DNA of 64,000 nucleotides from Massilia aquatica. Lineage in GTDB: Bacteria > Pseudomonadota > Gammaproteobacteria > Burkholderiales > Burkholderiaceae_D. The notes below the pieces were generated by a model. The model was not told where the DNA came from, searched no databases, and was given only the letters and a program-made list of their open reading frames with translations. The position numbers were made by a program, and so were the translations under genes. The stretch is from positions 124,001 to 188,000 of the forward strand of contig NZ_VVIW01000001.1 of NCBI RefSeq assembly GCF_011682045.1, given 5' to 3'. Position 1 is the stretch's first letter, and each line of letters begins with the position of its first letter. Of this stretch, positions 18,223-26,079 are shown one piece after another.

Positions 18223-18780
18223 ATGAACGATTTTCAGCCTGCCAATGTCGAAGCCGATGGCGATGCGCTCAAGCGCTGTTTTGCGCCGGTGGCCGATGCC
18301 AACACCCGTATTCTTGTGCTCGGCAGCCTGCCGGGCGAACGCTCGCTCGCGCAGCAGCAATATTATGGCAATCGCCAGAACCGCTTCTGGGCCTTGATGT
18401 CGGAAGTCACCGGCGTCGACCTGGTGGCGCGCGATTACGAGGCGCGCCTGGCGGCCTTGCTGGCGCACGGCATCGGCCTGTGGGACGTGGTGGCGCAAGC
18501 CCGCCGCGAGGGCAGTCTCGACAGCCAGATTCGCGGCCATGTGGGCAACGACCTGGCGGGGCTGGTGCTGAGCCTGCCGCAGCTGACGACGATTGCTTTC
18601 AATGGCGGCACGGCGGCGCGCCTGGGCATCAAGGCGCTGGGCGACCTGGCGCAGCGCTATCGCATCGTCAACCTGCCGTCGAGCAGTCCGGCGTACACGG
18701 CGCCGTATGCGGAGAAATTGCTGGTGTGGCGGACGCTGGAAGATGATGTGACTCGCCCGGCCAGCAGCAGCCTGAAATAA
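18223..18780 (+). CDS. Hypoxanthine-DNA glycosylase (UDG superfamily, family 6)
   Basis: 185 residues. Motif 1 LVLGSLPGERSLAQQQYYGNRQNRFW and motif 2 LPSSSPAYT match DNA-deoxyinosine glycosylases of the uracil-DNA glycosylase superfamily, which remove deaminated adenine. GLWDVVAQARREGSLDSQI is also typical. The last few codons overlap, on the other strand, the frame of a broken vapC gene; the C-terminal tail after WRTLEDDV is short and may have been acquired in that rearrangement. Confidence 0.9.
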   Translation: MNDFQPANVEADGDALKRCFAPVADANTRILVLGSLPGERSLAQQQYYGNRQNRFWALMSEVTGVDLVARDYEARLAALLAHGIGLWDVVAQARREGSLDSQIRGHVGNDLAGLVLSLPQLTTIAFNGGTAARLGIKALGDLAQRYRIVNLPSSSPAYTAPYAEKLLVWRTLEDDVTRPASSSLK

Positions 18781-18812
18781 TCAATCCACACGCTTGAATC
18801 GACCAGCGTCAC
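18768..18812 (-). pseudogene. vapC toxin remnant (N-terminal codons only)
   Basis: Immediately after vapB, GTG at 18812 overlaps its stop (GTGA), and the frame reads VTLVDSSVWIDYFR, the standard start of VapC PIN-domain ribonucleases with the first catalytic Asp. After about 14 codons it runs antisense into the 3' end of the glycosylase gene and no further PIN motifs appear. The toxin body has therefore been deleted. Confidence 0.75.
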
Positions 18813-19003
18813 CGGTCAGTCCGTATGGCATCGAGGTCGCCTTCCCACATCAGCTTCCCGCGAAGTTGACGTATTTTTTCCTGTTGATGAAGGCGTAGAA
18901 TCGTTCGTAATCCTGGTTCCACCACCTCACGTTTGGTCTTCAGTCCGGTCAACTGGAGCGTTTCCTCCAACAACTTTTCATCAATCAAAATGCTCGTTCG
19001 CAT
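18809..19003 (-). CDS. vapB: VapB-type antitoxin, toxin partner lost
   Basis: 64 residues, MRTSILIDEKLLEETLQLTG then LKTKREVVEPGLRTILRL, the pattern of the DUF2191/VapB antitoxin family: a short DNA-binding N-terminus and a C-terminal LRGKLMWEGDLDAIR segment that would wrap the toxin. Its vapC is a remnant of about 14 codons, so this is an orphan antitoxin. An inverted repeat operator lies 18-38 bp upstream. It may still repress itself or neutralise a related VapC elsewhere. Confidence 0.85.
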   Translation of the reverse strand: MRTSILIDEKLLEETLQLTGLKTKREVVEPGLRTILRLHQQEKIRQLRGKLMWEGDLDAIRTDR

Positions 19004-19020
19004 GATGGTCTCGCTTGATC

Positions 19021-19041
19021 AGGTCTACCTATGCTAGACCT
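19021..19041. promoter_or_regulatory. Candidate VapB operator
   Basis: Perfect inverted repeat AGGTCTA-7-TAGACCT, 18-38 bp upstream of vapB. Position and symmetry fit autoregulation by a dimeric antitoxin. Confidence 0.6.
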
Positions 19042-19133
19042 GAGTGGCACGCGCCGCAATGGCGTTTCGCTCTTACGTGTCGCGCCACAATACCACTTAT
19101 GCAATTTGCATTAACCATAGAATAATATTTATC

Positions 19134-19162
19134 TTGACGCAATTTTGACATGCGACTAGGAT
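19134..19162 (+). promoter_or_regulatory. Candidate promoter of the RiPP operon
   Basis: -35 TTGACG (19134-19139), 17-bp spacer, -10 TAGGAT (19157-19162), in an AT-rich stretch 65 bp before the first precursor gene. A second TTGACA (19146-19151) lacks a well-spaced -10. Confidence 0.55.
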
Positions 19163-19226
19163 TTCCTTGCCGCTATAAGCGGTACACCGTTGGATTGAAT
19201 TTCGCTATTTTTTGAAAGATACGAAA

Positions 19227-19403
19227 ATGAAAAATCAAAATGGAATGAAAACGTTCGCGTTCAAGCTGGCCGAGAAAAAAACCAAGGAAGCAAAACCCGC
19301 ACCACAGTGGCAAGCGCGCGAAGGCGTCGCCAGCGCCGGCTGCTCCGGTCCGGATGCCCGCGGCGACCGCCGTCCAGGCCGCGACAACGGTATCTATTGC
19401 TGA
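19227..19403 (+). CDS. RiPP precursor peptide 1 (putative)
   Basis: 58-residue peptide, same length as and strongly similar to the peptide at 19493. Leader-like residues 1-30: shared block FAFKLAEKK (10-18) and KEAKPAPQW (20-28), Lys/Glu-rich and probably helical. Core-like residues 31-58: shared GVASAGCSG (33-41), Asp43, Arg45, Asp47, GRD (51-53) and a C-terminal Cys58. Two conserved cysteines (39 and 58) and three conserved aspartates are the candidate modification sites. A hairpin terminator follows at once, then the paralogue and an ATP-grasp ligase. ATG at 19227 is preferred to the upstream TTG at 19212 because it aligns with the paralogue's start; both precursors share TTTTTGAAAGA upstream. 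Precursor role inferred from context. Confidence 0.82.
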   Translation: MKNQNGMKTFAFKLAEKKTKEAKPAPQWQAREGVASAGCSGPDARGDRRPGRDNGIYC

Positions 19404-19421
19404 CAGATTCGCTGGATAAAC

Positions 19422-19448
19422 AGCCTTGCTCACCGCAAGGCTTTTTTT
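19422..19448 (+). terminator. Hairpin with T-tract between the two precursor genes
   Basis: Stem AGCCTTG (19422-19428)/CAAGGCT (19436-19442) with a 7-nt loop and a run of seven T. It should end part of the transcripts after precursor 1 and give the precursor an excess over downstream enzymes. Confidence 0.85.
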
Positions 19449-19492
19449 ATCCGAACTGCTGTCCTCCACATCACTTTTTGAAAGACCGATCC

Positions 19493-19669
19493 ATGGAAAA
19501 GCAAGAGAACACCAAGCTGTTTGCCTTCAAGCTCGCTGAAAAGAAAGCCAAAGAAGCCAAGCCAGCCCCGCAATGGAAACTGCGCGACGGCGTCGCCAGC
19601 GCCGGCTGCTCGGGCGAAGACCAGCGTGCCGATGGTTACTGGGGCCGCGATCTGGGCGTCTGGTGCTGA
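19493..19669 (+). CDS. RiPP precursor peptide 2 (putative)
   Basis: 58 residues, aligned without gaps to precursor 1. Identical: FAFKLAEKK (10-18), KEAKPAPQW (20-28), GVASAGCSG (33-41), D43, R45, D47, GRD (51-53), G55 and C58. Variable positions cluster in the core (QRADGYWGRDLGVWC here), including aromatic residues at 49-50 and 57. Asp32 replaces Glu32, and an extra Glu42 appears. Conserved leader, diversified core and adjacent ATP-grasp gene are the hallmark of RiPP precursors. Too short for many gene callers; ATG at 19493 follows the TTTTTGAAAGA box. Confidence 0.85.
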   Translation: MEKQENTKLFAFKLAEKKAKEAKPAPQWKLRDGVASAGCSGEDQRADGYWGRDLGVWC

Positions 19670-19688
19670 TCGCCTGATATCGCAGCAA

Positions 19689-19715
19689 GCCCTGCTCTCT
19701 CGGGCAGGGCGTTTT
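19689..19715 (+). terminator. Hairpin between precursor 2 and the ATP-grasp gene
   Basis: Stem GCCCTGC (19689-19695)/GCAGGGC (19704-19710) then GTTTT. With only four T it is probably a leaky terminator or an RNA-stabilising hairpin, letting some polymerase reach the enzyme genes. Confidence 0.7.
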
Positions 19716-19739
19716 CCGTTGACCTCTTCAAAGCGGTAT

Positions 19740-20738
19740 ATGGCGAAAAAGGTTTTGATTGTCAGTAACAGCGCCGACCTGCATGTCGACCTGCTCATCC
19801 CCATCCTGCACGCGAAGGGATGCGCGGCCTTCCGCATCGACCTCGATTGCTTCCCGCGCGATTACCAGAGCGCGCAATGGTTTGCCGCAGGCAGCCTGCG
19901 CCAGTGGATCCGCCACCTGCCCTCGGGCGTGGCGCTCGACCTGGCCGAGGTGGGCGCGATCTGGAGCCGCAAGCCGGCCGAATTCAGTTTTCTCAGTCCC
20001 GACCTGGGCGTGCAGGAACGCATCTACGCCAGGGCCGAAACCGAACAGGCGCTGTTCGGCATGCTCTACACGCTCGACTGCTTCTGGATGAGCCATCCGC
20101 TGGCCTTGCGCGGCGCCATGTGGAAGGGCGAGCAATTGCAGCGCGCCGCGCGCATGGGTTTTCGCATTCCCGCGTCGCTGACCACCAATTCGCCCGCCGA
20201 AGTAAGAGCCTTCCGCGCCAGTATTGACGGCCCGATGATCTTCAAGGCCCTGTCCAGCCCCAATCTGGGCGGCGAAGACCTGGACGATGACGAGCGCGTG
20301 GCGCAGGGCATCGGCACCACCCTGGTCGATGACGCCATGCTGGAACAACTGGACTCGGTGGGCGAGCTGGCCTGCCATTTTCAGGAGTACATTCCCAAAC
20401 TGTACGAACTGCGCGTGACGATCATCGGCGAGCGCGTGTTCGCGGCCAGGATCCATTCGCAGGACGACGAGCGCACCGCCATCGATTCGCGCGATATGTC
20501 GGCCGATATCCTGTACGAGGCGACCGTCCTGCCGGACGCGCTGCGCGAGCGCTGCCTGGCGTTCGTGCGCAGCTACGGCTTGCCATACAGTGCGCTGGAC
20601 CTGATCGTCACGCCCGATGAGGACATCGTTTTCCTGGAAAATAATCCGGTCGGCCAGTTTCTCTACATCGAACAGTTGATTCCCGCATTCGCCATGCTCG
20701 ACGCGCTGGCCGACCGACTCATTGAGGAGTGCGCATGA
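19740..20738 (+). CDS. Graspetide-type ATP-grasp peptide ligase (MvdC/MvdD-like)
   Basis: 332 residues. N-terminal Rossmann-like half (KKVLIVSNSADLHVDLL, 3-19), then the family marks IWSRKP (74-79; microviridin-ligase type), an ATP-binding Lys in MIFKALSS (166-173), FQEYIPKLYELRVTIIG (214-230), FAARIHSQ (234-241) and the metal-binding FLENNPVGQFLYIE (298-311). Known relatives activate Asp/Glu side chains with ATP and form ester or amide crosslinks in a precursor core (microviridins and other graspetides). Here the precursors are the two peptides just upstream, with Asp43, Asp47 and Asp53 as candidate acceptors and Ser36/Ser40 as donors; this is inference. Stop overlaps the protease start (ATGA). 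ATG at 19740 lacks a strong ribosome-binding site. Confidence 0.9.
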   Translation: MAKKVLIVSNSADLHVDLLIPILHAKGCAAFRIDLDCFPRDYQSAQWFAAGSLRQWIRHLPSGVALDLAEVGAIWSRKPAEFSFLSPDLGVQERIYARAETEQALFGMLYTLDCFWMSHPLALRGAMWKGEQLQRAARMGFRIPASLTTNSPAEVRAFRASIDGPMIFKALSSPNLGGEDLDDDERVAQGIGTTLVDDAMLEQLDSVGELACHFQEYIPKLYELRVTIIGERVFAARIHSQDDERTAIDSRDMSADILYEATVLPDALRERCLAFVRSYGLPYSALDLIVTPDEDIVFLENNPVGQFLYIEQLIPAFAMLDALADRLIEECA

Positions 20739-21619
20739 CCCAGTCACACCGTTTTCCCGTGCGTGAGCAGATCAAGGAGATCGAAGCGCTGCGCAACAGC
20801 CGCGTGCTGGTATTGGCGGCCTCGAACCTGGACATGGAAATCCTGCCGGCCTTGTATGAACAGTGCCGCGGCATTGGCCGGGTGGCGCGCCTGGACGTGG
20901 TGCTGCAATGCCGCGGCGGCATCGTCAACGCGGCGCGCCGCATCGCGCTGCTGCTGCGCCAGTTCAGCGAGCACCTGGCGTTCATCGTGCCGTATCACTG
21001 CGAGTCCTCGGCCACCATCCTGGCGCTGGCGGCCGATGAAATCATCGCTGGCGACCTGGCCATGTTTTCGCCGATCGACCCGCACCTGCACGGCGGTAGC
21101 GGCGACGACAGCGCCGCCTCGTCGTTTTCGTGCCAGGACATCAAGATGTTCGGCGCCATGAGCGAGGAGTGGTTCGGCGTCAGTTCCGATGAAGCGCGCC
21201 TGCAGTCGCTTGGTCTACTTTGCAGCAGCATCTTCCCGCCGACCCTCACCGCGTTTTACCGCAGCACCCAGGAAGTCATGCGGATCGGCGAAGAGCTGCT
21301 GCGCTTTCACATGCCCGACAAACCCGAGGCCTTCCGCCAGGATGTGGTCAAGGAACTGATGTTCGGCTACTACTCGCATAACTACGCGCTCACGCGCGAG
21401 GAGCTGGCGAAACTTGGCTTGAACATCCGGCGCGAAGCACAGGTGGAAGACTGCGCCTGGCGCATGTCGCGCGTGCTGCAAACGATCGTCGGCGGCGGCC
21501 TGCGCGAATCGGCCGAGGCACCGTGGAACGATGTGCTGCTGGCCACGCGCGACGGCGGCATGCTGCGCGAACAGCACAGCGGCGCCTTTCTGCCGCGCTG
21601 GAGCAAGCTGGCCGTATGA
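20735..21619 (+). CDS. SDH/ClpP-fold serine protease (SppA-like)
   Basis: 294 residues of the serine dehydrogenase proteinase (SDH) branch of the ClpP/crotonase superfamily. LDVVLQCRGGIVNAARRIA resembles the oxyanion-region glycine motif; PYHCESSATILALAADEI (86-103) carries the probable nucleophile Ser91 or Ser92, and FSPIDPHL (111-118) is an SDH family mark. No membrane segment. GAGGAG precedes ATG 20735; the start overlaps the ligase stop (ATGA) and its stop overlaps the MauE-like start (ATGA). In this setting it is the best candidate for the leader peptidase, although the SDH family is not a usual RiPP protease; this is inference from coupling. Confidence 0.82.
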   Translation: MTQSHRFPVREQIKEIEALRNSRVLVLAASNLDMEILPALYEQCRGIGRVARLDVVLQCRGGIVNAARRIALLLRQFSEHLAFIVPYHCESSATILALAADEIIAGDLAMFSPIDPHLHGGSGDDSAASSFSCQDIKMFGAMSEEWFGVSSDEARLQSLGLLCSSIFPPTLTAFYRSTQEVMRIGEELLRFHMPDKPEAFRQDVVKELMFGYYSHNYALTREELAKLGLNIRREAQVEDCAWRMSRVLQTIVGGGLRESAEAPWNDVLLATRDGGMLREQHSGAFLPRWSKLAV

Positions 21620-22137
21620 CCGCCGCAGCCTACCTGGCGGAGATCATCCGCTTCTTCACCGCGTTTTTTCTGGTGTGCGCCGCCATCGGCAAACTGCGCA
21701 CCCTGGCCGCGTTCGCGCATAATCTGGTCGAGTCGTTCGGCGTGAAGCGGCAGGCGGCCGCGCTGCTGGCACCGGCCGTCATCGCGCTTGAGGCCCTGCT
21801 GGCGGGCCTGATCCTGGCCGGCGGCGGCATCGGCCGCTTCGGCATGGCGGCCGCCCTGGTGCTGTTCGTGCTGCTGACGGCGCTCGTCGGCTACCGTTAC
21901 GTGGTCGAAGGCAGCGTCAAATGCAGCTGCTTCGGCGAGAGTGAACGGCCGGTATCGGGCTACGATCTGCTGCGTAATGGCCTGGTCATCGCCAGCATCG
22001 GCGCCTGCCTGGCATTCTCCGGCGGCGCCGTTTTCGGCAAAAAGGAAAGCGTGCTGGCCGCCGCGCTGGCGGCAATTGCCACCATCGGCGCGATCGGCTT
22101 CCACGACCTTGCCCGTACCTTCAAGCGGAGCGCCTGA
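21616..22137 (+). CDS. MauE/DoxX-like membrane protein
   Basis: 173 residues with four membrane helices. The start TAAAYLAEIIRFFTAFFLVCAAIGKLR and the loop YVVEGSVKCSCFGE (CxCFG motif) mark the MauE family, named for methylamine dehydrogenase maturation, where it works with the thioredoxin-like MauD, probably in disulfide formation. The CxC pair faces a thioredoxin-fold partner encoded by the next gene, overlapping in TGATG. In this operon it would serve redox handling of the two precursor cysteines; inferred. Confidence 0.85.
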   Translation: MTAAAYLAEIIRFFTAFFLVCAAIGKLRTLAAFAHNLVESFGVKRQAAALLAPAVIALEALLAGLILAGGGIGRFGMAAALVLFVLLTALVGYRYVVEGSVKCSCFGESERPVSGYDLLRNGLVIASIGACLAFSGGAVFGKKESVLAAALAAIATIGAIGFHDLARTFKRSA

Positions 22138-22703
22138 TGGATAGCGACGTCCTGGCCGTCATCCTGCTGCTGCTGGCGCTGAGCGTGGCCCTCAACCTCA
22201 AGCTGTCCTTGCAACTCCTGAACCTCGTGAACGGTCTGAGTGCCGCCGCAAAGGCGGCATCGATGCTGCCGCTGGGCGAAGCGCTCGACGCCTTCAGCGG
22301 CAAACGCCTGGCCAACGGCGCGCCGCTCACGGTGGGCGACGACGGCCAGCCGGCGGTGCTGCTGTTCCTGTCCAGCGCCTGTCCCAAATGCCGCCACAAG
22401 CTGCCCGAAATCGCGCGCCTGGCGCCGCTGGCGCGCGAGGCCGGCGTGGCGCTCTGGCTGGTCAGCCTGGAGCCGGGCTGGCGCCTGCGCCGCTTCCTGC
22501 AAGCGACCGCGCTGGCCGGCAGCACCGTGCGCGTCTCCAGCGCCGACTACGAGATGCTCAACCCGCTCATGTCGTCGCCTTCCTACCTGTTCGTCAGCCA
22601 GGCCGGCACGCTGGACGCGCGCGGCATGATCGGCGACGACGACTGGCGCAGCTTTTGCGAACAGATGGACGAGCTGCCGATGGCGCAAGAGGCAAACGCG
22701 TGA
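22137..22703 (+). CDS. Membrane-anchored TlpA/MauD-like thioredoxin-fold protein
   Basis: 188 residues: N-terminal membrane anchor (LAVILLLLALSVALNLKLSL), then a thioredoxin fold with active-site motif CPKC in LLFLSSACPKCRHKLPEI (about 75-92) and a cis-Pro-like SSPSYLFVS later. The shape is that of MauD, with the redox domain outside the membrane. Start overlaps the MauE-like stop and its stop overlaps the exporter's GTG start. It likely makes or breaks a disulfide in the precursor product, paired with MauE. Confidence 0.85.
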   Translation: MDSDVLAVILLLLALSVALNLKLSLQLLNLVNGLSAAAKAASMLPLGEALDAFSGKRLANGAPLTVGDDGQPAVLLFLSSACPKCRHKLPEIARLAPLAREAGVALWLVSLEPGWRLRRFLQATALAGSTVRVSSADYEMLNPLMSSPSYLFVSQAGTLDARGMIGDDDWRSFCEQMDELPMAQEANA

Positions 22704-24472
22704 GCAGGCCGTCGCCCCATCTGGACCGCCTGCGCCTGCTGCGCCCCTTCGCCGGGCGCCTGTGCGCGGGCCTGGCGTGCATGGCGGTGACGGTGCTGAT
22801 CCAGCTGGCCTACCCGAAGGCGCTGTCGTACTTCATCGATAACATCAACATGAGGAAGGACATGGCGTGGTTCAGCTCACTGGCCTTGACCATGCTGGCC
22901 GTGCTGGCGCTGCAGGCCGTGGCGGCCACCGCGCGCTATTACATTTTCGAGTCGACCGGCTACATGATCGTCACGCGCATCCGGCGCCAGTTGTATGCGG
23001 CGCTGATCGCGCAGCCGATCCGCTTCTACGACAAGCACCACGTCGGCGAACTGACCAACCGCCTCACGGCCGATGTCGACATCCTGCACGACACGCTGAC
23101 CATGGGCATGGCCGTGTCGCTGCGCTGCCTGTGCGTGTTCATCGGCGGCGTGGTGATGCTCTTGACGATTTCGCCGGTCCTCTCCCTGATGCTGGTGGTC
23201 TTTTTGCCGGCGACCCTGTTCATCGGCAAAATGACGGGCAAGGTGTACCGCAAGCGCGCCAGCCTGATGCAGGACGGCCAGGCCGACTGCGGCAAGGTCG
23301 CCCACGAACACCTGTCGAATATCCGCCTGGTGCACGCCTTCAGCCAGCAAGGTACCGCGCGCGCACGCTACGCCGGCGCGACCGAAAACGCGTTGTCGCT
23401 ATCGGTATCGAGCAGCGCGCTGTTTGCACTGTTTCGCGGCGGCTCGTCGTTCCTGGTGTACCTGGCGCTGCTGGGCACCTTGTGGTTCGGCGCGCGCCTG
23501 ATCGGGCAGGGCGCGCTGACGGTGGGCGAGCTGACCGCCTTCATCCTGTACGCCAGCATGGTGACCGAAGCGGCGGGCGCCATCGGCGAATTCTGGAATA
23601 CGTGGATGCGCACCATCGGCGCCACCGAATGGATCTTCAAGGTCATCAACAGCGAACGCGCGCAGGAGGCCGCGCCCGGTGCCGATGTGCATGTGCAGGG
23701 CAGGCTGGCATTCGAGAACGTGGTGTTCGCGTATCCCGGGCGGCCCGATACGGCGGCACTGAACGGCATCGATTTTTCCATCGCCGCCGGCGAGACGATT
23801 GCGCTGGTCGGCGCATCGGGCGCCGGCAAATCGACCATCGCCAGCCTGATCCTCGGTTTCTACCAGCCCGAGCGCGGCAGCATCCTGTTCGACGGCGTCG
23901 ACGCGCGCGCCATGCCGCTGGCGGGCCTTCGCAGCAAGCTGGCGATCGTGGAGCAGGAGCCATCGCTGTTCTCGGGCAGCATCTTCGAGAACATCGCGTT
24001 CGCGGTGGCGGAACGGGAAGTCACCCTGGACGAAGTGAAGGCGGCGGCCAGCCTGGCCTATGCCCACGATTTCATCAGCGCCTTCGCGGATGGCTACGAC
24101 ACCGTGGTCGGCGAGCGTGGCGCGCAACTGTCGGGCGGGCAGAAACAGCGCATTGCGATTGCGCGCGCCCTGCTGCGCGATCCGCGCATATTGATTCTGG
24201 ACGAAGCGACCAGCGCGCTCGATTCGGCCAGCGAACTGCAAGTCCAGCGCGCGCTCGACACCTTGATGCAGGGGCGCACCACGATCATCATCGCGCACCG
24301 CTTTTCCACCATCGTCAAGGCCGACCGCATTTTGGTGCTGGAGCAGGGCCGGCTGGCGCAGCAGGGCACGCACGCGCAACTGGTGGCGCAGGAGGGCTTG
24401 TACTTCCACCTGATGCGCCACCAGCTGGCGCGCGCCGGCACGGAACCGGCAGCGGAACCGGCAGCTGCTTAA
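22700..24472 (+). CDS. ABC exporter (permease-ATPase fusion)
   Basis: 590 residues. Six-helix transmembrane domain (about 15-300), then an ATPase with Walker A GASGAGKST, signature LSGGQKQR and Walker B RILILDEATSALD, and a switch His in IIAHRFST. MsbA/LapB-type half transporter; no C39 leader-peptidase domain at the N-terminus, so proteolysis must come from another enzyme (the SDH protease is the candidate). GTG at 22700 overlaps the upstream stop (GTGA). It would export the modified peptide. Its stop overlaps the stop of the convergent phoD gene by 4 bp. Confidence 0.9.
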   Translation: MSRPSPHLDRLRLLRPFAGRLCAGLACMAVTVLIQLAYPKALSYFIDNINMRKDMAWFSSLALTMLAVLALQAVAATARYYIFESTGYMIVTRIRRQLYAALIAQPIRFYDKHHVGELTNRLTADVDILHDTLTMGMAVSLRCLCVFIGGVVMLLTISPVLSLMLVVFLPATLFIGKMTGKVYRKRASLMQDGQADCGKVAHEHLSNIRLVHAFSQQGTARARYAGATENALSLSVSSSALFALFRGGSSFLVYLALLGTLWFGARLIGQGALTVGELTAFILYASMVTEAAGAIGEFWNTWMRTIGATEWIFKVINSERAQEAAPGADVHVQGRLAFENVVFAYPGRPDTAALNGIDFSIAAGETIALVGASGAGKSTIASLILGFYQPERGSILFDGVDARAMPLAGLRSKLAIVEQEPSLFSGSIFENIAFAVAEREVTLDEVKAAASLAYAHDFISAFADGYDTVVGERGAQLSGGQKQRIAIARALLRDPRILILDEATSALDSASELQVQRALDTLMQGRTTIIIAHRFSTIVKADRILVLEQGRLAQQGTHAQLVAQEGLYFHLMRHQLARAGTEPAAEPAAA

Positions 24473-26079
24473 ACCCCCGCTGCCGGCAGCGTTTTGCTGA
24501 ACTGCGATACGCCATTCAAGTCGAACAGGTCGACCTTCATGGCTTTCGACTGCGGGTCGATATTGACTTCGCCGAAGAACTGGTAGCCGGCGAACGGCGA
24601 CGAGTTCTGGATCGGCGGCGCCTTGGCAAACACCTCGGTCGGGCCGAACGTCATATCGAGTTTGCCCGGACCGAAGGCGCCGGCATTCATCGGGCCGGCC
24701 ACGAATTCCCAGAACGGCGCAAAGTCGGTGAAGTGCGCCTTGGCCGGGTCGTAGTAATGGGCCGCGCAGTAATGCACGTCGGTGGTGATCCAGACCACGT
24801 TCGGCACCGCCTTGATGCCCTTGAGCAGGCGCGCCATTTCCAGTTCGCGTCCCGAGGCCGGGCCGCTCACGCCATTGGCCACCGCTTCCCACATCGCCAC
24901 GCCCTTGGCGTCCTTGCCGTCGGCCACTTCCAGCCCGATCGGCATGTCCGACGAGATGACCTTCCAGGTCGCTTTCGAGGCGGTCAGCTCGGCGATCAGC
25001 CAGTCCACCTGGGCCGAGCCGAGGATGGCCGAACTGGCGTTTTCCTCGGTTTGCAGATTGGTGCTGTTCGGACCGCGGTAGCTGCGCATGTCGATCACGA
25101 ACACGTCGAGCAGCGGACCGTAGCCAATGCTGCGGTAGATGCGCTGGGGTTCGGCCTGTTTGTAGAAGCGCATCGGCGCGTATTCCAGGAAGGCGCGGCG
25201 GCCGCGTTCGGCCAGGGTGGCGACGTTCTTTTCCTTGTAGCGGGCATCAAACGTCAGGTCCTTGGCGCCGCTGTAGTTGTTGGTCACTTCATGGTCGTCC
25301 CACTGCCAGATCTGCGGCACCTGCGCGGCGAATTTACGGAAATTCAGGTCGAGCGTGTTGTACGAGTGGCGGCCACGGAATTCCTTGAGCGTCTCGGCGA
25401 CCTTGCTCACTTCTTCGGTGACGATGCTTTTCCAGATCTGGCCGTTTTCGGCCTTCGCTTCGGCCGCGATCGGGCCGTCGGCGTAGACCGTGTCGCCGTT
25501 ATGGATGAAGAAATCCGGATCGCGCTTGCGCATCGATTCGTACATGCGCACGCCGCCGAAGTCGGTGTTGATGCCCCAGCCCTGGCCGGCCTGGTCGCCG
25601 CTCCAGTGGAAGCGGATGGCGCGCTTGCCGTCGGCCTGCGGCATGGTGCGGAACTGGCCCGACACAGCTTCGCTCTCGATGCGGCCATTGGCCGGGTCGA
25701 CGTACTTCACGCGCACGAACACGGTCTGGCCGGCGGGCAGGCCGGACAAATCCACGCGCGAGGTGAAGTCGGTGGCCTCGGTGGCGGTGGGGCCGATAAT
25801 GCGGCTGGCGTTGGTGAAGCGCTCGCTGGTGTCGTATTCGACGATCATCTGGGCATTGCGGTCGCTGCGGCTCCAGATCACGGCGCGCTCGCCGGTCACG
25901 TCGCCGAACTGGATCCCGGAGGGCAGCTTGGGCCGTTCGGCTTCGCTCGGGACGATGGCCGGGGCCGGGGAGTCCGAGCCGCCGCAGGCCGACAGCAGCA
26001 GCGAACCATTGAGGGCGGTGCCGCCGGCGATGATGCCGCCGCGCGTGAGGAAACCGCGGCGTGAAAGTGTTGAGGTCAT
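24469..26079 (-). CDS. phoD: Alkaline phosphatase D (PhoD), Tat-exported lipoprotein
   Basis: 536 residues. The N-terminus has a twin-arginine motif SRRGFL (6-11), a hydrophobic stretch and a lipobox LSAC (Cys32), so it is probably a Tat-exported lipoprotein. PhoD metal/active-site motifs: FFIHNGDTVYADGPI, WQWDDHEVTNNY and WITTDVHYCAAH. It hydrolyses phosphodiesters and monoesters extracytoplasmically with calcium/iron. ATG at 26079 is the first that gives the Tat signal; the upstream frame extension is noncoding. Convergent with the exporter; no promoter motif was recognised. Confidence 0.93.
   Translation of the reverse strand: MTSTLSRRGFLTRGGIIAGGTALNGSLLLSACGGSDSPAPAIVPSEAERPKLPSGIQFGDVTGERAVIWSRSDRNAQMIVEYDTSERFTNASRIIGPTATEATDFTSRVDLSGLPAGQTVFVRVKYVDPANGRIESEAVSGQFRTMPQADGKRAIRFHWSGDQAGQGWGINTDFGGVRMYESMRKRDPDFFIHNGDTVYADGPIAAEAKAENGQIWKSIVTEEVSKVAETLKEFRGRHSYNTLDLNFRKFAAQVPQIWQWDDHEVTNNYSGAKDLTFDARYKEKNVATLAERGRRAFLEYAPMRFYKQAEPQRIYRSIGYGPLLDVFVIDMRSYRGPNSTNLQTEENASSAILGSAQVDWLIAELTASKATWKVISSDMPIGLEVADGKDAKGVAMWEAVANGVSGPASGRELEMARLLKGIKAVPNVVWITTDVHYCAAHYYDPAKAHFTDFAPFWEFVAGPMNAGAFGPGKLDMTFGPTEVFAKAPPIQNSSPFAGYQFFGEVNIDPQSKAMKVDLFDLNGVSQFSKTLPAAGV

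What the first reader, a model, noticed from the sequence alone, without database searches (positions are those of the whole stretch)
19134..24472. Apparently new RiPP biosynthetic locus: twin precursors, graspetide-type ligase, SDH protease, MauE/MauD-like redox pair and exporter
Seen: two 58-residue paralogues, each followed by a hairpin; then ATP-grasp, SDH/ClpP-like protease, MauE-like, CxxC thioredoxin-like and ABC genes, joined by four 2-4 bp overlaps. Known: such ATP-grasp enzymes make ester/amide crosslinks in graspetides. Not recognised by me: any described graspetide class that couples the ligase to an SDH protease and a MauE/MauD-like redox pair. The combination suggests a crosslinked peptide that also carries a disulfide or other Cys modification.
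Basis: partly seen in the sequence, partly recalled or inferred. Interest (0 to 1): 0.9.

Follow-up and report, generated by a model that had tools for sequence, protein, structure and literature searches.

The report
Disulfide-clamped graspetide gene cluster
Seven bacterial genes appear to make small ring-shaped peptides in which an enzyme-made ester bond and a disulfide bond probably sit side by side and hold a highly variable loop; the gene set recurs in several bacterial phyla, and no description of it was found in the papers searched.

Summary
In detail: two 58-aa precursor paralogues, an MvdC/MvdD-type ATP-grasp ligase, a ClpP-fold SDH protease, MauE, a CPKC thioredoxin-like protein and an ABC exporter, with overlaps of 4, 4, 1 and 4 bp. 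The set is co-conserved: of 39 named genome loci with such a precursor and at least 4 kb downstream, SDH lies nearby in 39, MauE and MauD in 36, an ABC gene in 37; genomes of the three MauE/MauD exceptions carry MauE beside a second SDH. All 93 distinct precursors end in C-[S/T]-X(9-25)-[D/E]-X4-C, against 1 of 10,666 other small ORFs. SDH-linked ligases form one clade. In five distant loci, the three with MauE/MauD have 4-8 core cysteines, the two without have 0-1. Best reading: a graspetide variant with a Ser/Thr-Asp ester beside a Cys-Cys disulfide clamping a hypervariable loop; SDH probably removes the leader, MauE/MauD probably oxidise the cysteines. All chemistry is inferred. No paper found describes this combination, but supplements and key subscription papers could not be read.

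The parts
19134..19162 (+). promoter-like site (TTGACG-17-TAGGAT) upstream of preA
   Evidence: Consensus scan, 9 of 12 matches; 3 such sites in the region against 1.0 in shuffles; not evidence of function by itself.
19227..19403 (+). preA, 58-aa precursor; leader FAFKLAEKK, core AGC39-S40-X12-D53-xGxx-C58
   Evidence: member of a family of 103 ORFs in the fetched loci with a common C-terminal pattern.
19422..19442 (+). terminator-like hairpin after preA
   Evidence: z -4.85. Such hairpins follow 40 of 89 precursor genes of the named loci against 12 of 445 random stretches.
19493..19669 (+). preB, 58-aa paralogous precursor
   Evidence: 67% identical to preA.
19689..19710 (+). terminator-like hairpin after preB
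   Evidence: fold only moderately better than shuffles (z -1.61).
19740..20738 (+). ATP-grasp ligase (graspetide-synthetase type)
   Evidence: PF21068 over cut-off; TIGR04187/04184/04185 matched below their cut-offs; PDB relatives 5ig9, 7mgv CdnC, 5ig8, 7m4s AMdnB, 9bou.
20735..21619 (+). SDH-type ClpP-fold serine protease, probable leader peptidase
21616..22137 (+). MauE-like membrane protein, CxCFG motif (C103, C105)
   Evidence: PF07291 over cut-off; motif invariant in 19 of 19; helical bundle model, pLDDT 92.2.
22137..22703 (+). MauD/TlpA-like, probably membrane-anchored thioredoxin-fold protein, CPKC (C82, C85)
   Evidence: CxxC in 19 of 19; PDB profile hits ResA, DsbF; one N-terminal hydrophobic segment 1-32; homologue fused to MauE in L018 and L042.
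22700..24472 (+). ABC exporter, MsbA-like half-transporter; no peptidase-domain hit
   Evidence: PF00664 and PF00005.
24478..24491 (+). terminator-like hairpin at the end of the operon

Best explanation
A seven-gene operon for a graspetide variant. Two precursors are made in excess because terminators after each damp read-through into the enzyme genes. The ATP-grasp ligase binds the FAFKLA leader and activates the invariant Asp six residues from the C-terminal end, so that the Ser/Thr directly after the first Cys forms a side-chain ester (loss of water). The SDH protease cuts off the leader in the cytosol, most likely in the conserved W..R[DE]GV[AS].AGC stretch; the ABC transporter exports the peptide; the membrane-anchored MauD-like thioredoxin, re-oxidised by MauE, joins the first Cys to the C-terminal Cys (loss of 2 H). 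The product is a hairpin whose base is clamped by an ester and a disulfide and whose 9-25-residue loop is free to vary. Shown: gene set, co-conservation, invariant residues, predicted fold of SDH, conserved motifs. Inferred: every chemical step, the cleavage site, the order of steps, the transcription scheme and the biological role.
For: Co-conservation: 39 of 39 loci SDH, 36 of 39 MauE and MauD, 37 of 39 ABC. Exceptions: L019 and L031 lack MauE/MauD but their genomes hold a full second locus (L023, L026); L043's genome has SDH-MauE-MauD-ABC elsewhere (L097). Gene order: an in-frame ATG of SDH lies inside the end of the ligase gene in 35 of 44 loci (the ATG nearest the ligase stop was taken). 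Precursors: 93 of 93 end in C[ST]-X(9-25)-[DE]-X4-C, D in 92, G at -4 in 92; 1 of 10,666 other small ORFs does, and that one is no plausible precursor. In the window's own two precursors the 12-residue loop has no Ser, Thr or Lys. Mean loop identity 28% against 88% for the leader motif in 107 same-locus pairs. Ligase clade 100/99. MauE-MauD fusions in L018 and L042. Distant loci: with MauE/MauD 8, 4 and 6 core Cys (L051, L056, L125), the first followed by Thr in each; without, 0 and 1 (L055, L054). Negative control: 19 of 20 fetched Chloroflexota ligase regions lack SDH, MauE and MauD.
Confidence: 0.6

Rival explanations
1. The locus is a graspetide group already catalogued (for example among groups 25-43 of the 2026 RODEO survey, several of which have a neighbouring protease), merely not singled out for its redox pair. 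This rival concerns novelty and can be true together with the best explanation.
For: PMC13097080 section 7 reports 19 new groups, with groups 26, 30, 32 and 40 having a neighbouring protease, peptidase or PCAT; the survey has 21,584 predicted graspetides, so some members are probably in it.
Against: MauE, thioredoxin, disulfide, SDH, Clp, PF01972, Massilia and Janthinobacterium do not occur in that paper's main text, nor MauE, SDH, ClpP or thioredoxin in that of PMC8939145. Group 9 ('serine proteinase') shares a precursor cluster with groups 8 and 11, apparently in the actinobacterial branch (PMC8939145 section 5).
Confidence: 0.35
2. The SDH protease is not the leader peptidase but a self-protection or quality-control factor, or a stand-in for the target of a protease-inhibiting graspetide.
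For: Characterised graspetides include serine protease inhibitors (PMC13097080 passage), and its authors suggest proteases near graspetide genes may serve resistance; Arg is in 89 of 93 loops.
Against: It is the only SDH over the Pfam cut-off in the window's genome, so it is no duplicate of a resident SDH; it usually follows the ligase directly, with an overlapping ATG in 35 of 44 loci; no peptidase domain was found in the exporter, so something else must cut.
Confidence: 0.2
3. The ligase joins other residues: a thioester from one of the invariant cysteines to the Asp, or esters or amides to the variable loop acids.
For: Loop acids are present in 87 of 93 precursors; ester-forming ATP-grasp ligases have been shown to form amides and thioesters when the nucleophile is substituted (PMC12291112 passage).
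Against: Only one Ser/Thr and one acid are invariant; the leader-side acid of R[DE]G is not invariant; a thioester would use up a Cys that the redox pair is expected to oxidise.
Confidence: 0.2
4. MauE/MauD keep the cysteines reduced or serve the exporter or another secreted protein, and the product carries no disulfide.
For: TlpA/ResA-like proteins include reductases (recalled); ResA is the top PDB profile hit. L060 precursors have an odd number of Cys.
Against: Presence in the locus tracks Cys-rich cores in 5 of 5 distant loci, and the pair was absent from 19 of 20 other Chloroflexota ligase regions.
Confidence: 0.12

Closest known systems
Graspetides (microviridin, plesiocin, fuscimiditide and other numbered groups)
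   Same: MvdC/MvdD-type ATP-grasp ligase beside short leader-core precursors with Ser/Thr and Asp in the core; aromatic leader motif.
   Different: One invariant Ser/Thr-acid pair flanked by two invariant cysteines; SDH protease and MauE/MauD pair, terms that do not occur in the main texts of PMC8939145 and PMC13097080. Leader removal described so far by a C39 transporter or the zinc protease NosP (PMC13039773 passages), not by an SDH.
decRiPPter MauE/MauD candidate RiPP families of Streptomyces (PMC7794033, section 7 read)
   Same: MauE, once with MauD, beside candidate precursors with at least 8 Cys, with the same suggestion of precursor modification.
   Different: In that section the MauE families and the ATP-grasp families are described separately and no ligase-SDH-MauE-MauD set is reported.
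SDH family Clp-fold serine proteinases (PF01972; NF047768)
   Same: Pfam match over cut-off, ClpP/1510-N fold, Gly-Gly and Ser91 kept.
   Different: 71.5 bits against the NF047768 equivalog cut-off of 250; coupled to an ATP-grasp ligase; SDH, ClpP and SppA do not occur in the 2023 review of RiPP leader proteases (PMC10885120, term search).
mau-cluster MauE/MauD (methylamine dehydrogenase maturation)
   Same: PF07291 and weak TIGR02661 matches; CxC and CxxC motifs.
   Different: The pair sits in a peptide operon and is fused into one protein in two loci.

Membership tests
RiPP biosynthetic cluster | Small precursor gene with conserved leader and variable core next to a modifying enzyme | tested here: met
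   103 homologous precursor ORFs in the ligase loci; leader motif 88% and loop 28% identical within loci.
Graspetide | MvdC/MvdD-type ATP-grasp ligase | tested here: met
   PF21068 over cut-off; PDB graspetide ligases CdnC and AMdnB among relatives. TIGR cut-offs not reached.
Graspetide | Core with nucleophile (Ser/Thr/Lys) and carboxylate (Asp/Glu) for a side-chain ester or amide | tested here: met
   Invariant S/T and D/E in 93 of 93 distinct precursors; sequence level only.
Graspetide | Enzyme-made side-chain ester or amide in the product | not testable with these tools
   Needs mass spectrometry.
A numbered graspetide group (1-43) | Ligase falls in a published similarity-network group | not testable with these tools
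   Group tables are in supplements (0 look-ups) or in papers not held.
Microviridins | PFFARFL leader (motif as given in PMC8939145) | tested here: not met
   PFFARF occurs in 0 of 103 precursor ORFs; FAF in 92 of 93 distinct ones.
SDH protease (PF01972) | Curated family score and Clp fold | tested here: met
SDH equivalog (NF047768) | Score over 250 bits | tested here: not met
   71.5 bits; so an SDH-type protease, not that equivalog.
SDH protease (PF01972) | Active peptidase on this precursor | not testable with these tools
   Ser91 kept in 24 of 24; activity unknown.
MauE | Curated family score and CxC motif | tested here: met
   76 bits against 27; CxCFG in 19 of 19.
MauD equivalog (TIGR02661) | Score over 188.6 bits | tested here: not met
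   23.2 bits; so 'MauD-like' only.

The most novel reading that the evidence does not exclude
A distinct graspetide class in which a ligase-made ester and an oxidase-made disulfide form a two-bond clamp that displays a hypervariable loop, with an SDH-type leader peptidase and a dedicated MauE/MauD oxidation module: in effect a natural loop-display scaffold. The exact clamp pattern occurs in Pseudomonadota and one myxobacterium; Cys-rich relatives with the redox pair occur in Chloroflexota and Actinomycetota, and redox-free relatives in Chloroflexota and Verrucomicrobiota.
Probability: 0.45. Interest if true: 0.8.

Novelty: new variant of a known kind. Interest (0 to 1): 0.68.

Why it matters
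Few graspetide leader peptidases are known: PMC8939145 (2022) calls the enzyme unknown (section 5), and a 2026 paper describes a C39 transporter and the zinc protease NosP (PMC13039773, passages). This set offers an unrelated candidate that is kept beside the ligase in 39 of 39 loci. If the ester and disulfide both form, the family gives loops of 9-25 residues held by two neighbouring bonds and already diversified by nature (up to nine paralogues per locus), of use for protease-inhibitor or display work, and gives a testable role for MauE/MauD outside methylamine metabolism.

Tried and rejected
Rejected: chance gene neighbours (refuted); SDH as a duplicate of a resident SDH (only one over the cut-off in G000); group 9 graspetides as the match (same precursor cluster as groups 8 and 11, apparently actinobacterial; not fully excluded).

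Paper searches in which no such system was seen: 15 of 15 listed; 1 of 1; 4 of 4; 15 of 133 listed; 31 listed of 37; 20 of 20; 0 found; 3 of 3; 12 of 924 listed.

Counts to read with care: the Cys/[ST]/[DE] pattern was read off the same precursors that were then counted. The controls are, where of 126 ORFs with a FAF-like leader string the 102 that are profile hits fit and the 24 others do not (three of those 24 are the distant precursors of L051, L055 and L056), and the background of 1 of 10,666. In the tree, L035, L036, L037 and L050 were labelled SDH by hand: L036 and L037 show the start of SDH before the contig ends, L035's genome has SDH in another locus, and none was found for L050; L055 fell out by a length filter. 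In the Chloroflexota control 20 of the 29 listed matches were fetched, some contigs are short, and several are the Thermogemmatispora loci already among the named 79. The distant precursors of L051, L054, L055 and L125 were first picked by eye. Foldseek TM-scores for SDH are modest (0.28-0.48 by query length).
Full report
The finding is real. Exact coordinates give preA 19227-19403, preB 19493-19669, an ATP-grasp ligase 19740-20738, an SDH protease 20735-21619, MauE 21616-22137, a CPKC thioredoxin-like protein 22137-22703 and an ABC half-transporter 22700-24472. The four overlaps are 4, 4, 1 and 4 bp. Pfam names the ligase (PF21068), SDH (PF01972), MauE (PF07291) and ABC genes over their cut-offs; the CPKC protein is just under the AhpC-TSA cut-off. 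NCBIfam models match ligase, SDH and MauD-like protein below their cut-offs, and neither precursor matches a Pfam or NCBIfam family. A promoter-like site precedes preA, and terminator-like hairpins follow preA, preB and the ABC gene; the scan found 11 terminator-like and 3 promoter-like sites in the region against 5.6 and 1.0 in shuffles.

The genome looks Massilia-like (Oxalobacteraceae): the ligase is 97% identical to one in Massilia mucilaginosa (L047). Seven of the 17 same-genus genomes examined, the window's own included, carry the ligase; of all 100 genomes in that search 10 match at E up to 1e-10, one of the other three at 62% and two at 34% identity. In the class at large it is sparse: 1 of 369 at E up to 1e-60, the window's own genome. 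The protein search found 488 relatives at E up to 1e-20; the 120 listed are 60-100% identical.

Co-conservation was tested on 79 named loci found with a ligase alignment (113 candidates, best 80 kept). Forty-three carry FAFK-type precursors; 39 of these have at least 4 kb downstream of the ligase. In these 39, SDH lies within 6 kb in 39, MauE in 36, MauD in 36 and an ABC gene in 37. The misses for MauE/MauD are L019, L031 and L043. L019 and L031 are second loci of strains whose other locus (L023, L026) is complete, and genome searches place MauE beside a second SDH in all three genomes; for L043 this is SDH-MauE-MauD with a divergent ABC gene but no ligase or precursor (L097). Of the four precursor loci with shorter flanks, L036 and L037 show the start of SDH before the contig ends, L035 (3.6 kb) shows none but its genome has a second complete locus (L098), and L050 ends after 100 bases with no SDH or MauE found in its genome. 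Of 36 loci without such precursors only five have SDH: L044 (truncated upstream), L051, L054, L055 and L056. Of 20 Chloroflexota ligase regions fetched out of 29 listed matches, one (L125) has SDH, MauE and MauD and 19 have none; several of those contigs are short and several repeat named Thermogemmatispora loci. A tree of 98 ligases puts the 48 SDH-labelled rows on one side of a branch with support 100/99 (four labels set by hand, L055 absent). MauE and MauD are one fused protein in L018 and L042.

The precursors give the chemistry its clue. Iterated profile search returned 103 ORFs, 93 distinct; 89 of them lie in the 43 named loci and the rest in the genome-search loci. All 93 end in C-[S/T]-X(9-25)-[D/E]-X4-C, four with one extra Ala; the acid is Asp in 92 and position -4 is Gly in 92. 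The leader FAF is in 92 of 93; the L040 entry lacks it. Ninety have exactly two Cys; the three from L060 have three. The acid before the core (R[DE]G) is not invariant, so the only invariant nucleophile besides Cys and the only invariant carboxylate are the Ser/Thr after Cys1 and the Asp at -6. Further Ser/Thr occur in 67 of 93 loops and further acids in 87, so extra links cannot be ruled out. Among 107 same-locus pairs, mean identity is 88% in the leader motif, 75% in the W..GC[ST] block, 28% in the loop and 62% in the tail. One of 10,666 other small ORFs fits the pattern.

The distant members test the redox pair. L051 (Anaerolineae), L056 (Nocardiopsaceae) and L125 (an unnamed Chloroflexota genome) have MauE and MauD, and their precursors carry 8, 4 and 6 cysteines after the tryptophan motif, the first of them followed by Thr in each; L055 (Ardenticatenaceae) and L054 (Opitutae) lack the pair in the locus and have 0 and 1. 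Five of five agree, but L055's genome has MauE-like genes elsewhere and L054's one weak hit. The L056 precursor lies on the opposite strand and was noticed only.

Mechanism: the ligase is expected to make the ester, SDH to remove the leader, the ABC protein to export, and MauD/MauE to form the disulfide outside. Only the parts list and its conservation are shown. The hypervariable loop with Arg in 89 of 93 suggests protease inhibition, which is a guess.

Literature. PMC8939145: outline, sections 5-7 read, term searches of the main text; no SDH, MauE, ClpP or thioredoxin. PMC13097080: outline, section 7 read, term searches; no MauE, thioredoxin, disulfide, SDH or Clp, but several new groups with proteases. 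PMC7794033: section 7 read, and passages. PMC12291112, PMC10885120 and PMC13039773: passages only. Ramesh 2021, Lee 2020 and Choi and Link 2023 are not held and are known to me only as citations and by recall. Searches in which no description of the combination was seen: some with capped lists. This is therefore filed as a new variant of graspetides, with a fair chance that it sits unnamed in an existing catalogue.

Noticed in passing
window 18657-19003 (-): A VapB antitoxin gene (PF09957) with a 51-aa ORF that resembles a truncated VapC (likeness recalled) sits just upstream of the cluster; about 18770-19092 has no counterpart in the aligned relatives L011, L012, L015 and L047, so it looks like a small insertion in this strain.
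   Followed up: partly
L013 7928-9944 and L014 7926-9944: Nine tandem paralogous precursors in each of Pseudoduganella violacea and Massilia sp. BJB1822.
   Followed up: no
L069, L070, L072 upstream of the ligase: Thermogemmatispora ligase loci have possible precursor ORFs with a PFAFFFAQER-like segment and no Cys, and no SDH nearby, suggesting the FAF leader is older than this variant.
   Followed up: no
L097 (G469:C32): SDH-MauE-MauD with a divergent ABC gene but no ligase or precursor; the ligase, precursor and another SDH lie elsewhere in the same genome (L043).
   Followed up: partly
L012: Massilia frigida has one precursor, most like preA, where the window has two; the other five genes are present.
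   Followed up: no
window 18223-18780 (+): Gene for a DNA-deoxyinosine glycosylase (TIGR04274, over cut-off) upstream of the cluster; probably an unrelated neighbour.
   Followed up: no
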